This document shows positions 31,098 through 59,744 of a stretch of 60,713 bases of DNA, piece after piece. Made by a program: the position numbers and the translations under genes. The notes beneath the pieces were generated by a model. The model did no database searches, was not told the DNA's origin, and was given only the letters and a program-made list of their open reading frames with translations. The DNA comes from a virus, in IMG/VR virus record IMGVR_UViG_3300048905_000215, positions 1 through 60,713 of that record. One strand, given 5' to 3'. Every line of letters starts with the position of its first letter. Within the stretch, counting starts at the first letter, position 1.

Positions 31098-32762
31098 TCA
31101 CCTCACTCTCACCACTCTTCCCCGCTTCTTCGGCAGGTACTTCAGGCATTCCATGCGGGCCTGCCACGACAGCACCGCCGCCATAGCCAAGTCGAACTTC
31201 CGATCCCTGTGCAGCTTCGTCAGCAGCCACAGCGGCTTACCGGTTTCGATGTCCACCCGGTTGAGCAGCTTCTTGCCAGCGTTGCCGACGTGCCGCACCA
31301 GATCGCCGTGCTTGGCCGGTACGCCCTTGGTGAAGTCGTGGTCGGCGATGCGGACCTTGCCGCCGTTGATCGCCGTCTCGTAGGCCAGCAGAGCCTTGAT
31401 CATCCGGTCTTGCTTATTGGTCCAAAACTCTTGAATGACAGCCTGTTTGGTCAGCGCGCTGTCACCGGCAGCCGCTGACCAGTTGCCGACCGTCGTCTCC
31501 CAGTACGCCGGATCCGCGTAGAACAGCATCACCCGGTAGTTGCGCCGGATCCAGTTCCACTGAGCGTTGACCGCCTTCTCGTCGACCTCCCAGTTGTCGA
31601 CGTTCAGCGGCTTCTCCCACAGCCCGATCGGCTGCTGCACGCCCGTGCGCACGTCAGTGAGCACGATGCCCGTCGAGTCCCGGAACCGAGCACCATCCAT
31701 GCCCACCGTCACAAACGATCGGCGCGGGATGATCAACTCCGGATAGCAGAGATCCTTGAACTGACCGAGGTTGAACGCCTGAGCACCCTGCTGAGTCCAC
31801 CGGTTGCACCACACTCGCTCGAGGTACGCGGTGTCCGCACCGGGGATGTCCCACTGCGACGCCAAATCCTCAAGGTCGGTGCGCGCCGCCAACTCTGGAC
31901 CTGACGCCTCCCGGATCGCCTCAACCCGCTGCTCGAAATCCTCCATATCCCAGTCGTCCGAGGCCTGGCGGTGGAAATACCACATACGGGGACGCTTGAT
32001 CTCGTTGCGGGACATCGCCTCGGCCTCGAAGTGATCGGTCTCCGCAACGGAATTCTGACCCGGTTGGCCAGCAGTCGTCGTCGACATCGACCACGGATCC
32101 TGCGCTACGCGCTTGCCGAGGTTGGCCTCCATCGTCGTGACCGCGTTGCGTTCCGACTCCAGATACAGGCGGTGCGTCTCATCGAAGCACTGGAACGTCG
32201 TGCGGCCACCGTCGTTGGAGTCCGGAGCGTTCGCCAGCGGGACAGCCTTACCGTCGGCCTTCCCGCGAGAGTCAAGCCGGATGATCCGGTCCAGCGACAC
32301 GTCGAACAGGTCAGCATCGACGCATTCCTCACAGATCAGCTTCAGCGCGCCGTACGCGAGTTCCTCGACCTGCAGCTTGGCGTTGGCCAGCATCGGGATG
32401 TACGGATCGACCACCGGCCGGCCCTGCTTCAACCGGCCCCACCGGTCGAACCCGTCGAACCGCACCGGAGCCTCCGGATGCAACTCCGCGAACGCGATCA
32501 ACGCCGCCAGCTCCGTCTTCGCCGCACCCTTGCGCACCGACATCGCGACGCGCTTCCACCGCCGTTTACCCGCACGCGGATGACCCTTCGGCCACACCTC
32601 ATACGCCCGGTGGATGATGAAGCGCCGATCAGCGTCGAGTTTGAGCTTCTGCCCCTTCAGATCGCCAGGGCCGAAACAGGCACGCTCCTCGAGGAAGTCG
32701 CACACCTGATCGCCCAGAGTGGGAAAAAGCTCGTCCTCGATCGCCGGGACGATGAGATCCAT
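31098..32762 (-). CDS. terL: Terminase large subunit, 554 aa
   Basis: The ATPase half has a Walker A-like S-V-R-K-G-A-A-K-T-E with Lys 82 and a Walker B-like F-D-E-T with Asp 194 and Glu 195. The RNase H-like nuclease half shows acidic residues in V-G-M-D-G (Asp 356), F-Y-A-D-P (Asp 417) and F-D-L-A-M (Asp 524). It powers DNA into the prohead and cuts the concatemer. It lies nine bases downstream of the small subunit. Confidence 0.92.
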   Translation of the reverse strand: MDLIVPAIEDELFPTLGDQVCDFLEERACFGPGDLKGQKLKLDADRRFIIHRAYEVWPKGHPRAGKRRWKRVAMSVRKGAAKTELAALIAFAELHPEAPVRFDGFDRWGRLKQGRPVVDPYIPMLANAKLQVEELAYGALKLICEECVDADLFDVSLDRIIRLDSRGKADGKAVPLANAPDSNDGGRTTFQCFDETHRLYLESERNAVTTMEANLGKRVAQDPWSMSTTTAGQPGQNSVAETDHFEAEAMSRNEIKRPRMWYFHRQASDDWDMEDFEQRVEAIREASGPELAARTDLEDLASQWDIPGADTAYLERVWCNRWTQQGAQAFNLGQFKDLCYPELIIPRRSFVTVGMDGARFRDSTGIVLTDVRTGVQQPIGLWEKPLNVDNWEVDEKAVNAQWNWIRRNYRVMLFYADPAYWETTVGNWSAAAGDSALTKQAVIQEFWTNKQDRMIKALLAYETAINGGKVRIADHDFTKGVPAKHGDLVRHVGNAGKKLLNRVDIETGKPLWLLTKLHRDRKFDLAMAAVLSWQARMECLKYLPKKRGRVVRVR

Positions 32763-32771
32763 CGAACGCGG

Positions 32772-33266
32772 CTACGAAGCCTTCCCGCCCTTGACGACCT
32801 GGAACGCCGCCCGCGGATCCGCAGCCTTCTTCGCCGCCCGCTTCCGCGGAGCCGCCTTCTTCGCCGCGCCGGCGGGTTGCTCGTCGTCCTCGCCGGGAAG
32901 CTCCCATTGCAACGAGCGCCGCGACATAGGCGTCAGCCCGAACTGCGCCTCCAGCAACCGCAGCTCAGCCGACAACGCCTTCATGTCCTTCGTATCGACG
33001 TAGTTGCCGTCCTTGTCCGGGGACCACAGTCGCTGCATGAGCAGAGCACCCCGATACAGCCCATCGAGATCCGCGTCAGCCCACTCGCCACGCATCGGCG
33101 ACGACCACACCCGCTGCCACCAGTCCTTGACCCGCGAGTGCCACTCAGTGTCCTCGGGCAGTGGCGGAACAGCGGGCTTCGGTTGGGCTCTCAGCTTCGC
33201 CTTCGTCGACGTCGTATTGCGACGAGCGCGGACAGACGGATGCTTCGCGTTCGGACCTGGCGGCAT
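32772..33266 (-). CDS. terS: Terminase small subunit, 164 aa
   Basis: A basic N-terminus precedes a helical core containing W-W-Q-R-V-W and D-L-D-G-L, similar to P27-type small terminases of actinophages. The C-terminal ~40 residues are Lys/Arg/Ala-rich. It recognises the packaging site and loads the large subunit encoded next. Confidence 0.82.
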   Translation of the reverse strand: MPPGPNAKHPSVRARRNTTSTKAKLRAQPKPAVPPLPEDTEWHSRVKDWWQRVWSSPMRGEWADADLDGLYRGALLMQRLWSPDKDGNYVDTKDMKALSAELRLLEAQFGLTPMSRRSLQWELPGEDDEQPAGAAKKAAPRKRAAKKAADPRAAFQVVKGGKAS

Positions 33267-34087: not shown

Positions 34088-34388
34088 GTCGGACTCCTCA
34101 TCTCGACGGGATCTGAAATCCCCCGAACCCGTACGGAGCTTTTTTCACAGGGTGTTGCGGCAGGGCAGCCATACCCCCGGGGGGCTCCCCACCCCTCCCC
34201 TTTGACTAAACCTGCAGGTCAGAGCGTTGGAGGGTGAACGAGGTCCGGCGCGGTGCTTTTCAAGGCACCGCGCCGGATGTCACCACCTCACCAACCACCA
34301 CAGAAGGAGGGCACCGATGACGAGCACGAACGCTACCGGAGACGAAGGGTCAGTCCCGTCAGCGAGAGTCGTTGGTGTGTCCGCTGAG
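34088..34388. other. Non-coding region, candidate cos/packaging site
   Basis: No supported gene fills these 301 bases. They hold a C/G-rich block at 34171-34199 (CCCCCGGGGGG core), an A-tract on the minus strand near 34140 and the long hairpin listed separately. The place, between an HNH gene and the terminase operon, is where cos lies in many HNH-encoding siphoviruses. The exact cut cannot be read from sequence. Confidence 0.4.
34244..34277. repeat. 13-bp perfect inverted repeat (hairpin)
   Basis: TCCGGCGCGGTGC at 34244-34256 and GCACCGCGCCGGA at 34265-34277 are exact complements around an 8-base loop. No T-tract follows on either side. It could terminate transcription coming from the HNH gene or be part of the packaging site. 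Confidence 0.75.
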
Positions 34389-34748
34389 TCAGCGTCTGCG
34401 CTGGCGGTCTGCGGTGCGGGCCTTGTGCTCGTTGCAGGCGTCGCATGCGGCGCGTAGGTTGCGCCGCACTGTGGCCAAGTCGGGTCGCCGTGCTGCTGGT
34501 GTTGTCTTGTCGACGGTGGTTGCTTCGCCTGTGCATATGCCGGGATACATGATCTGGCACTGGTATTCGTCGCGTTCGAGGATGTCGGCTCGGAGCTGTT
34601 GCCATTCCCATGTGGTGGTGGCTTGGCTTGATGCGGTGCGTGGGCCGTGCCATGCGACGGTGTGGTCGGGGCAGTGTTTCTGTCCGCCTTGGATGAGGTT
34701 GGGGCATTCGTAGTTGTCGCCTGGGCAGCGGCGGGGTGCGCGGGGCAT
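34389..34748 (-). CDS. HNH endonuclease, 119 aa
   Basis: The core has a C-Q-I-M-Y-P-G-I-C half and a C-D-A-C half that form the zinc-bound beta-beta-alpha-metal fold. Phage HNH proteins next to terminase help cos cleavage in packaging. The usual V-D-H-I-x-P is V-D-K-T-T-P here, so the first catalytic His is replaced by Lys; the central Asn appears kept (R-N-L). It may be catalytically altered. The N-terminus has a further Cys/His cluster. Confidence 0.75.
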   Translation of the reverse strand: MPRAPRRCPGDNYECPNLIQGGQKHCPDHTVAWHGPRTASSQATTTWEWQQLRADILERDEYQCQIMYPGICTGEATTVDKTTPAARRPDLATVRRNLRAACDACNEHKARTADRQRRR

Positions 34749-34763
34749 CCATCCCCCAATTCT

Positions 34764-34806
34764 GTCTAGTCCACACTTGACATGTTTGTCTAGAGTGGGC
34801 TAGACT
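34764..34806 (+). promoter_or_regulatory. hicAB promoter inside a palindromic operator
   Basis: TTGACA at 34777-34782 and TAGACT at 34801-34806 are spaced by 18 bases. The -10 box ends six bases before the hicA ATG, predicting a leaderless mRNA. The arms GTCTAGTCCACAC (34764-34776) and GAGTGGGCTAGAC (34793-34805) match as an inverted repeat at 11 of 13 positions. Another GTCTAG lies at 34788-34793. Autoregulation by the antitoxin is the likely use. Confidence 0.65.
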
Positions 34807-34812
34807 GATAGC

Positions 34813-35028
34813 ATGCCCAAGCGGACAGAGATCATCAAGAAGATCACCAAGGCAGCCACTGCCAACGGTATGACCTTCGCGTTTGACCGTCGTGGTGGCA
34901 ACCACGACATCTACAAGCTCGACGGCATGCCGATCCCGGTTGGCCGCCACCGTGACTTCGATCCCTCGTACGCGGTCATGGTCTACAAGGAGTGCGAGCC
35001 CAAGCTCGGGAAGGGGTGGTGGAAGTGA
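34813..35028 (+). CDS. hicA: HicA-like toxin, 71 aa
   Basis: HicA toxins are small double-stranded-RNA-binding-fold mRNA interferases. Size, the basic helical N-terminus (P-K-R-T-E-I-I-K-K-I), the central R-G-G-N-H-D-I-Y with the catalytic-type His 31, and the following P-V-G-R-H-R-D match the family. No ribosome site precedes the ATG, consistent with leaderless translation. It is coupled to hicB by a GTGA overlap. It is the only clear plus-strand operon in the middle of the genome. Confidence 0.8.
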   Translation: MPKRTEIIKKITKAATANGMTFAFDRRGGNHDIYKLDGMPIPVGRHRDFDPSYAVMVYKECEPKLGKGWWK

Positions 35029-35417
35029 TCACCTATACCGCTGTCGCTAGTCGCGGCGAACGTTGGTGGGTTGTGCGGGTGCTCGGCCTAGGCAATGACC
35101 CGGATGAGGGGTTGCCCACGCAGGCAAGGACTTTGGCCGAGGTGGAGCCGATGGCCCGTGACCTGGTGGCGCTATGGCTGGAAGCTGCGCCGGATTCGTT
35201 CGACATCACGGTTCAGGTCGAGTTGCCTGATTCGGTGAACGATCATCTGCGGCGGGCGAAGAAGTACGCCGACGAGGCCGCGCACGCGCAAGCCGAGGCC
35301 GCTTCTGAGCGTCGGCTCGCGGCGCGGGACCTGAAGGAGGCGGGACTCACGGTGCGAGACGTTGGCTTCGCGTTGGGGGTTTCGCACCAGCGTGCACAGC
35401 AGCTACTCGCGGGCTGA
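35025..35417 (+). CDS. hicB: HicB-like antitoxin with HTH, 130 aa (GTG start)
   Basis: Residues 1-55 fit the HicB partial RNase H fold (Y-T-A-V-A-S-R-G, then P-T-Q-A-R-T-L-A-E-V). Residues ~80-105 are an Ala-rich helix. The C-terminus, L-T-V-R-D-V-G-F-A-L-G-V-S, is a helix-turn-helix for DNA binding. It should neutralise HicA and repress the palindromic promoter. The GTG overlaps the hicA stop. Confidence 0.78.
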   Translation: MITYTAVASRGERWWVVRVLGLGNDPDEGLPTQARTLAEVEPMARDLVALWLEAAPDSFDITVQVELPDSVNDHLRRAKKYADEAAHAQAEAASERRLAARDLKEAGLTVRDVGFALGVSHQRAQQLLAG

Positions 35418-35427
35418 ATCGCACGTT

Positions 35428-35443
35428 TGCCCAGATGTGGGCA
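35428..35443 (+). terminator. Short hairpin after hicB
   Basis: TGCCCA and TGGGCA form a six-base stem with loop GATG, 11 bases after the hicB stop. It is short, so termination would be partial. It could also limit transcription arriving from the leftward early operon. Confidence 0.4.
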
Positions 35444-35487
35444 TAGCTCTGCTGGGCACAATGTACCGCATGCGTTGCGTGTGGCGT

Positions 35488-35892
35488 TTAGCCTGCGCGT
35501 TTGCGGCGGCGTGTCAGGTAGCCGAGGACTTCGCCGACGTTGTAACGGGGGCTGCCGTCGGGGGCGGTTTCGCTGCTGATTCGTCCACGGTAGTGCCAGT
35601 CTCTGACATCTCGGGCTGTGAAGGTGGTGAGGTGCGCGAGGTGCACGACGATGTCGGCTGCGGACATCCACGCGTCGATCTCGACGGGCTGCGGGGTGGG
35701 TACGGGCCAGTGCACGCCGTGGTCGTGCCAGAACCGGTCCACGTTCTGTAGGTCGGCGGCGGGGTCGTCGCTCCAGGATTGGGCGATGCGGTGCAGTGCG
35801 CTGCGGTATGAGTCCGCGACCAATCGGGTTTCGCCTTCCCGGGTGCCGTCCCAGCGGGCGCAGAGGCAGACGGTGTCGCCGCACAGCTTCAC
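35488..35892 (-). CDS. DNA-binding-like protein, possible C-terminal part of a split gene, 134 aa
   Basis: A GTG at 35892 overlaps the upstream stop (GTGA). Two Cys pairs occur near the N-terminus and the last ~45 residues look like a MerR-type helix-turn-helix (T-A-R-D-V-R-D-W-H-Y-R-G-R-I). Coding-like codon use continues upstream of the GTG to about 35939 in this frame, so the gene may be the 3' part of a longer ancestral gene joined to the one at 35889-36881. Confidence 0.6.
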   Translation of the reverse strand: MKLCGDTVCLCARWDGTREGETRLVADSYRSALHRIAQSWSDDPAADLQNVDRFWHDHGVHWPVPTPQPVEIDAWMSAADIVVHLAHLTTFTARDVRDWHYRGRISSETAPDGSPRYNVGEVLGYLTRRRKRAG

Positions 35893-58616: not shown

Positions 58617-59744
58617 TCAGTCGTCCAGCATTTCGCTGATGGCTGCAGCCGCCGCTTCGGCACTGGATCGATCGAGGTGGCCGTAGGTATTGACCGTCGT
58701 GGTGATCGACTCATGGCCCAGGTGTTGCTGAATGACCGGAAGCGGAACGCCGGCGGCGATCATCCACGACGCGCACGTGTGCCGAAGGTCGTGTATCCGC
58801 GGTCGCTTCGTCAGGACCGGTCGGCCTTCCTTCTTGGCCAGATCCTCGTTCATGGCGCGGGCCAACGCCGGCCGCCACAGGTTCGACTGGAACGAGTGGA
58901 TCCGCACCGGGTTGCCCCTGCCGTTGACGAACAGCCACTCCCTCGAATAGTCCAGTTGATCGAGCACCCGCCCGGGCACGTTGATCGTGCGGACGGACCT
59001 TCGGGTCTTCGTCGTGCCGAGCGTCATGCGGGAATGGCCATCCATCTTCCACGCCCTGGTGATGCGGACGGTGCATGCGTCGCGGTCGACGTCGGACGGT
59101 CTGAGCGCCGTCGCTTCACCCCACCGCGCACCCGAGGCGACGAGGAACTCGATCAACGGGCGGTACTGCTGGCTGACGGCTCGCTGCATGATGCGGAACT
59201 CGTCGCGGGTGAGGAACACCATCTCCGTGCGGTCCCAGCGCGGCAGGCGGTTGCCGTCGCACGGGTTGGACTGAAGGTGCTTGGGCATACCGGCGGCGAG
59301 CGCTCCCGAGAGGAACCCGTGCTTGTTCATGATCGTCTTGCCAGACGAACCGGAAGCCGCCAGCAGGTTCACCCAGCGCCGCACATCATCACGCGACAGC
59401 TCGGCCAGGGGGATGTGGCCCAAGTGCGGCGAGATGTCGTTGATGATGAACGCGGTGTAGCGGTCCCTGGTGCCCTTGTCGACGCCGGTCAGGTGTTCGA
59501 CGTGATGGCGCAGGTACTGGTCGACGGTGAGCTTCGTGCGTTCGGCGCGGATGACCTTGAGTAGCTCGAGGGCGCGACCGGGACCGTGGGTGTTGAAGAG
59601 TTCCAACGCATAGCGGGCGTCGGCTTCGCCTTGTTCGCCCTCGAACGACAAGGAGTGCTGGGTTCCTTTGCGACCGCCAATGCGGTACAGCACCGACCAG
59701 TACTTGGTGCCGTCGGCCTTCTTGCGCTCACGGAAGCTGGCCAT
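58617..59744 (-). CDS. int: Tyrosine integrase, 375 aa
   Basis: Catalytic residues are all visible: Arg 207 (S-G-A-R-W-G-E), Lys 246 (T-K-T-R-R), His 318 with Arg 321 (H-D-L-R-H-T), His 344 (L-G-H-E-S-I) and Tyr 354 (N-T-Y-G-H-L-D). An N-terminal arm-binding segment and a core-binding helical domain (~72-150) are present. It recombines attP and attB. The ATG follows a GGGGGG-containing purine run. It indicates a temperate life cycle. Confidence 0.92.
   Translation of the reverse strand: MASFRERKKADGTKYWSVLYRIGGRKGTQHSLSFEGEQGEADARYALELFNTHGPGRALELLKVIRAERTKLTVDQYLRHHVEHLTGVDKGTRDRYTAFIINDISPHLGHIPLAELSRDDVRRWVNLLAASGSSGKTIMNKHGFLSGALAAGMPKHLQSNPCDGNRLPRWDRTEMVFLTRDEFRIMQRAVSQQYRPLIEFLVASGARWGEATALRPSDVDRDACTVRITRAWKMDGHSRMTLGTTKTRRSVRTINVPGRVLDQLDYSREWLFVNGRGNPVRIHSFQSNLWRPALARAMNEDLAKKEGRPVLTKRPRIHDLRHTCASWMIAAGVPLPVIQQHLGHESITTTVNTYGHLDRSSAEAAAAAISEMLDD

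What the first reader, a model, noticed from the sequence alone, without database searches (positions are those of the whole stretch)
34764..35417. HicA/HicB-type module with leaderless promoter inside its operator
A two-gene toxin-antitoxin unit on the strand opposite to both flanking operons has a -35/-10 pair embedded in an 11/13 palindrome, with the ATG right at the expected transcription start. In a lysogen it could stabilise the prophage or abort infection by other phages. The divergent HNH gene shares the region, so HicB could also affect the packaging end of the genome.
Basis: partly seen in the sequence, partly recalled or inferred. Interest (0 to 1): 0.6.

Follow-up and report, generated by a model that had tools for sequence, protein, structure and literature searches.

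The report
Prophage hicAB toxin–antitoxin, self-repressed leaderless promoter
This mycobacterial prophage carries an ordinary HicA-type RNA-cutting toxin gene with its HicB antitoxin, and the promoter that starts the toxin gene exactly at its first codon lies inside two copies of HicB's probable binding site, a layout that turns out to be shared by most related modules in actinobacterial phages and genomes.

Summary
At 34764–35417 lies a class 3 hicAB operon: HicA 34813–35028 (71 aa) and HicB 35025–35417 (130 aa, C-terminal HTH). HicA is 55% identical to the proven toxin gp91 of phage Adephagia and keeps R4, R26, G28 and H31, needed for gp91 toxicity. The "palindrome" is two tandem inverted repeats (34764–34781, 34788–34805); the -35 lies in the first, the -10 in the second, and the ATG falls on predicted +1.

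The layout is a family trait. Of 74 distinct hicAB loci found by HicB protein alone, 53 have strict GTCTA…TAGAC next to hicA and 7 a looser form, against 0 of 821 other ORF starts. A DNA-pattern scan returned 55 sites, 26 of them hicAB with the ATG of hicA in place. Class 2 hicBA modules without the HTH lack it (0/7).

So: a new member of a known kind. Autorepression by HicB is the best reading; binding, toxicity and any defence role are untested. The HNH/packaging idea is weak: no HNH promoter-like site was seen and the operator occurs once in the phage. M. tuberculosis toxin–antitoxin operons are already known to be mostly leaderless.

The parts
34764..34781 (+). operator site 1, GTCTAG-N6-CTTGAC (5/6 symmetric), overlaps the -35
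   Evidence: same element in relatives
34777..34782 (+). -35 hexamer TTGACA
34788..34805 (+). operator site 2, GTCTAG-N6-CTAGAC (perfect), overlaps the -10
   Evidence: conserved in 53/74 distinct loci (strict)
34801..34806 (+). -10 hexamer TAGACT (fits the mycobacterial TANNNT)
   Evidence: logo; TANNNT from PMC3898074
34813..34813 (+). predicted transcription start = A of the hicA ATG (leaderless)
   Evidence: inferred from spacing; 55 of 71 relatives have an in-frame ATG/GTG at the same spacing
34813..35028 (+). hicA, 71-aa HicA toxin with R4, R26, G28, H31
   Evidence: phrog_353 toxin 5.6e-14; alignment to Adephagia gp91; fold
35025..35417 (+). [quoted passage not shown] GTG start overlaps the hicA stop
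   Evidence: phrog_8245 HicB-like antitoxin 2.5e-23
34389..34748 (-). divergent HNH endonuclease gene (neighbour, not part of the module)
   Evidence: phrog_144 3e-16; 61% to prophi68-1 gp47
32772..33266 (-). terminase small subunit (context)
   Evidence: PF25673 5e-18
31098..32762 (-). terminase large subunit (context)
   Evidence: phrog_9 2.5e-49; 66% to M. abscessus prophages
58617..59744 (-). tyrosine integrase (supports a temperate phage)
   Evidence: PF00589 1.7e-23, phrog_1 2.9e-73

Best explanation
A self-repressed class 3 hicAB toxin-antitoxin operon in a temperate mycobacterial phage. HicB, probably as dimers, binds through its C-terminal HTH to two tandem GTCTAG palindromes that cover the -35 and the -10, so that HicB blocks RNA polymerase. 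When HicB runs low, or excess HicA pulls it off the DNA, transcription starts at the A of the hicA ATG and gives a leaderless mRNA translated for HicA; HicB follows by translational coupling over the GTGA overlap, binds HicA and re-represses. Free HicA cuts RNA. Shown by sequence: gene identities, operator geometry, its conservation and its link to HTH-bearing HicB. Inferred: HicB as the binder, leaderless mRNA, toxicity, release by excess HicA. The benefit to the phage (maintenance or exclusion of other phages) is unproven.
For: HicA: phrog_353 'toxin' 5.6e-14; 55% identity to Adephagia gp91 with R4, R26, G28, H31 kept, residues whose substitution removes or relieves gp91 toxicity (PMC11373665); alpha-beta-beta-beta-alpha model, pLDDT 96, with solved HicA toxins as the three best Foldseek matches. 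HicB: phrog_8245 2.5e-23; N-domain matches the T. thermophilus structure 2yzt, prob 0.98, and RNase H folds. Operator: strict form in 53 and loose in 7 of 74 distinct loci chosen by HicB protein, control 0/821; 16/17 HTH-type pairs in separately searched Mycobacterium genomes; DNA pattern finds hicAB in 26/55 hits; absent from seven class 2 hicBA loci without HTH. Symmetric changes of the outer operator base (G/C to T/A twice, to C/G twice; shuffles do not reach the observed pairing) speak for a dimer site rather than a bare -10. In-frame ATG/GTG exactly at +1 in 55/71 and one base further in 9, matching the RTG rule for leaderless translation (PMC4633059).
Against: No binding, transcription or toxicity data for this module. 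Foldseek E-values for HicA (0.2-0.5) are not significant on their own; Pfam HicA_toxin is below its cut-off (17.2 vs 27) and NCBIfam gives nothing. The compensatory-change test rests on four loci, two of them closely related. A few relatives (e.g. L136, L147) lack a recognisable operator, and L186 has TTG with a broken -10.
Confidence: 0.85

Rival explanations
1. The operator is bound by the phage immunity repressor or a host regulator, so hicAB is part of the lysogeny circuit and HicB is only an antitoxin.
For: In several relatives hicAB lies beside integrase and repressor on the same strand (Babsiella, Phrann, WST1). Unrelated Cro/YdaS-like regulators carry look-alike GTCTA..TAGAC promoters in other phages.
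Against: The same operator goes with HTH-type HicB across phages and chromosomes of several actinobacterial families, is absent where HicB has no HTH, and occurs once in this phage.
Confidence: 0.08
2. The module is a decayed or inactive remnant: HicA is not toxic or the promoter is silent.
For: No experimental data; Pfam score below cut-off.
Against: Both frames intact, catalytic residues kept, operator perfect at site 2, promoter 10/12.
Confidence: 0.07
3. HicB also controls the divergent HNH gene next to the terminase and so events at the packaging end.
For: The HNH start lies 16 bp from the operator; HNH is the last gene before the genome end in GAL1.
Against: No minus-strand promoter-like site there; relatives have the HNH gene with other genes in the hicAB slot, so its expression does not depend on HicB in general.
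Confidence: 0.08

Closest known systems
Adephagia gp90/gp91 (cluster K class 2 hicBA; PMC11373665)
   Same: HicA 55% identical with the same catalytic and essential residues; HicB N-domain 45% identical; near the right genome end as in this phage; a leaderless start was predicted there too (for gp90).
   Different: Gene order hicB-hicA, HicB has no HTH, promoters are ESAS type without GTCTAG palindromes.
HicAB pairs of Gordonia phage Powerball and Mycobacterium ostraviense (L003, L127)
   Same: Same gene order, HTH-type HicB (43% and 66% identical) and HicA (54% and 68%); Powerball has the same tandem operators and leaderless ATG.
   Different: Other hosts and genome positions.
Yersinia pestis hicAB3 (review PMC11594946)
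   Same: hicA-hicB order; two operators upstream of hicA, the main one over the -10; HicB autorepresses.
   Different: RHH-type HicB; whether its mRNA has a leader was not examined here.
E. coli K-12 hicAB (PMC11594946, PMC10865869)
   Same: HTH-type HicB, operator over a promoter, derepression by excess HicA.
   Different: Two promoters, with the HicB-repressed one giving only HicB; here one promoter is seen and it starts at hicA.
Leaderless toxin-antitoxin operons of M. tuberculosis (PMC3898074)
   Same: 32 of 37 TA pairs with a primary start are leaderless.
   Different: A genome-wide transcript map; operators were not its subject in the passages read.

Membership tests
HicA toxin | HicA sequence family | tested here: met
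   phrog_353 toxin 5.6e-14; 55% to gp91. Pfam PF07927 hit is sub-threshold.
HicA toxin | catalytic His and upstream Gly | tested here: met
   H31 and G28 present; H31 invariant in 26/26
HicA toxin | dsRBD-like fold, alpha-beta-beta-beta-alpha | tested here: met
   AlphaFold2 model pLDDT 96; best PDB matches are HicA chains, though E 0.2-0.5
HicA toxin | RNA cleavage and toxicity | not testable with these tools
   toxicity shown only for the homologue gp91 (PMC11373665)
[quoted passage not shown]
   phrog_8245 2.5e-23; beta-beta-beta-alpha-beta order; 2yzt prob 0.98
HicB antitoxin, class 3 of Gerdes | C-terminal HTH | tested here: met
   helices 69-105, 110-117, 121-129; phrog_686 HTH 6.4e-6; Pfam HTH_23 sub-threshold
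HicB antitoxin, class 3 of Gerdes | hicA upstream of hicB, close or overlapping | tested here: met
   GTGA overlap at 35025-35028
HicB antitoxin, class 3 of Gerdes | binds palindromic operators of its own promoter | tested here: inconclusive
   operator conserved and linked to HTH-type HicB; binding not measured
Leaderless mRNA | transcript starts at an ATG or GTG | tested here: inconclusive
   predicted +1 = ATG; RTG at +1 or one base further in 64/71 relatives; no 5'-end data
Prophage defence system | protects lysogens from other phages | not testable with these tools
   no PADLOC match; negative panel for the homologue (PMC11373665)

The most novel reading that the evidence does not exclude
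Operator plus HTH is a common regulatory cassette carried by toxins that share as little as about 20% identity. HicB of one resident prophage could then repress the hicAB operon of another incoming phage or prophage without being able to neutralise its toxin, a form of cross-talk or incompatibility between prophages that ordinary toxin-antitoxin thinking does not expect.
Probability: 0.15. Interest if true: 0.6.

Novelty: new member of a known kind. Interest (0 to 1): 0.36.

Why it matters
Class 3 hicAB modules of actinobacterial phages are annotated often, but their operator was not found described in the searchable literature. A fixed DNA signature that predicts the HicB site, the promoter and the true hicA start (it suggests a start one codon later than annotated in Phrann gp34) makes the binding, the leaderless start and cross-regulation directly testable.

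Tried and rejected
Megablast of 12 kb of the window against phage genomes found nothing. phmmer of HicA against PDB gave only unrelated weak hits. HicA as a query in IMG/VR found no relatives, so HicB was used. The search for related loci with the diverse alignment A1 failed on genome contigs; A3 was used instead. First family scans failed because of wrong frame coordinates. The spread of GTCTAG-TAGACT-ATG in 299 whole genomes of the order was too rare to be useful (6 hits, 2 in the reversed control). No Rfam match, no tRNA. The idea that inner operator bases co-vary was not supported (P 0.24-0.35); only the outermost base shows it.

Full report
What is there. On the plus strand, between minus-strand genes on both sides, lie hicA (34813-35028, 71 aa) and hicB (35025-35417, 130 aa from GTG; the GTG overlaps the hicA stop as GTGA). 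HicA matches phrog_353 'toxin' (5.6e-14) and HicB matches phrog_8245 'HicB-like antitoxin' (2.5e-23); Pfam HicA_toxin is reached only below its cut-off. tblastn finds 273 phage records with relatives of HicA, nearly all mycobacteriophages, annotated as HicA-like toxin where named, and 175 with relatives of HicB.

The toxin. HicA is 55% identical over its length to Adephagia gp91, the most toxic protein of that phage, neutralised by its partner gp90. Substitutions G28C, H31A, H31R, R26H and R4C abolish or relieve gp91 toxicity (PMC11373665); all four residues are present here at the same positions, and H31 is invariant in 26 diverse relatives. The model (pLDDT 96) has the alpha-beta-beta-beta-alpha order and its three best PDB matches are HicA chains of solved HicAB complexes, although the E-values (0.2-0.3) are not significant by themselves. 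Toxicity of this protein is inferred.

The antitoxin. HicB has an N-terminal partial RNase H-like domain (best clean match 2yzt, prob 0.98), a long helix and a C-terminal HTH with the conserved pattern S-x-Q-R-x-x-Q-L. Its N-domain is 45-52% identical to the short, HTH-less HicB of cluster K phages. So this module and the Adephagia module share toxin and toxin-binding domain but differ in gene order and in whether a DNA-binding domain is attached: class 3 versus class 2 of Gerdes (PMC10865869).

The promoter and operator. Upstream of hicA lie two tandem 18-bp inverted repeats, GTCTAG-tccaca-CTTGAC (34764-34781) and GTCTAG-agtggg-CTAGAC (34788-34805), centres 24 bp apart. TTGACA (34777-34782) overlaps the first, TAGACT (34801-34806) the second, spacer 18; six bases later comes the ATG, on the expected +1. 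It is the only promoter-like site in 1.3 kb (0.2 expected), and the second palindrome is unique in the window (0.01 expected).

A family-wide test. Loci were collected by HicB protein similarity only, from phage records, IMG/VR and GTDB genomes. Among 74 distinct hicA-hicB pairs, 53 have a strict GTCTA-N3..8-TAGAC close to the hicA start, 7 a looser TCTA..TAGA, and most of the other 14 differ from the strict form by little, by eye; none of 821 other ORF starts in the same loci has the strict form. Mycobacterium genomes searched separately gave 16 of 17 HTH-type pairs with the strict form. In reverse, a DNA pattern (TTGAC, GTCTA, TAGACT, six bases, ATG), written from the first loci, was run over IMG/VR: of 55 hits, 26 are hicAB modules with that ATG as hicA start; some of the 26 contigs are also in the protein-derived set, and the remaining hits are mostly Cro/YdaS-like regulators in other phages and a few other genes. 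Seven class 2 hicBA loci with related HicA but no HTH have no such site. The -10 hexamer is nearly invariant, and an in-frame ATG or GTG stands six bases after it in 55 of 71 loci and seven after it in 9; there is no in-frame TTG, with one TTG exception in the later set where the -10 is also broken. This fits the finding that mycobacterial leaderless translation needs ATG or GTG at the 5' end (PMC4633059). Where the outermost operator base differs from G/C, four loci changed both arms together (T/A in two related Gordonia phages, C/G in two unrelated loci), which shuffled arms do not reproduce; numbers are small. The logo chose start codons by fit to the motif and is therefore descriptive, not a test.

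Mechanism. The best reading is autorepression: HicB dimers on the two palindromes cover -35, -10 and the neighbourhood of the start codon. Low HicB or excess HicA would free the promoter. The latter step is taken from E. coli, Burkholderia and Yersinia HicAB as summarised in PMC11594946 and PMC10865869. Leaderless expression of toxin-antitoxin operons is common in M. tuberculosis, 32 of 37 pairs with a primary start (PMC3898074), so that element is not new.

Context and biological role. The phage is temperate-looking (integrase) and its large terminase subunit is 66% identical to those of M. abscessus prophages. HNH lies on the terminase side; in the linear genome record of Gordonia phage GAL1 its homologue is the last gene, and in M. 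abscessus prophages the slot beside it holds different genes, some on the opposite strand. hicAB is therefore probably cargo at the packaging end, as in cluster K phages where hicBA lies near the right end (e.g. Curiosium). Any lytic transcript that reads from the right-hand minus-strand genes into HNH would cross hicAB in antisense; whether that happens is unknown. HicB control of HNH is not supported beyond proximity. For Adephagia, deleting the module did not reduce prophage stability and no defence was seen against about 60 phages (PMC11373665), so neither proposed benefit can be assumed.

Novelty. A new member of a known kind. What seems not to have been described, in the papers that could be searched (most subscription papers are not held), is the conserved tandem operator and its coupling to a leaderless hicA start. 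HTH regions are the most alike part of these HicBs (median pairwise identity 57%, against 40% for the N-domain and 29% for HicA), so the control cassette is kept while the toxin varies. This raises the testable possibility of cross-repression without cross-neutralisation between co-resident prophages.

Noticed in passing
L072, L073, L076, L077, L082, L084, L086, L090 and similar (pattern hits): Many non-hicAB hits of the operator pattern lie directly before small Cro/YdaS-like HTH regulator genes of other phages, with a further upstream GTCTA not asked for by the pattern: a look-alike operator with the ATG at the same spacing.
   Followed up: no
L007 2280-2286 (Phrann gp34), record NC_031266.1: The promoter spacing suggests that HicA starts one codon later (second GTG, L007 position 2283) than annotated.
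   Followed up: partly
window 34088-34388: A 300-bp stretch with no convincing gene between the HNH gene and the terminase-side genes; by comparison with GAL1 it may hold the cos site.
   Followed up: no
L005 2032-2253 (Francois gp35): Annotated 'HicA-like antitoxin' although it is the toxin; the gap of about 210 bp to hicB and a changed operator (TTCTA..TAGAA) are shared with BetterKatz (L017).
   Followed up: partly
window 35418-35487: hicB and the minus-strand gene ending at 35488 converge with no terminator-like site found between them, so transcripts may overlap.
   Followed up: no
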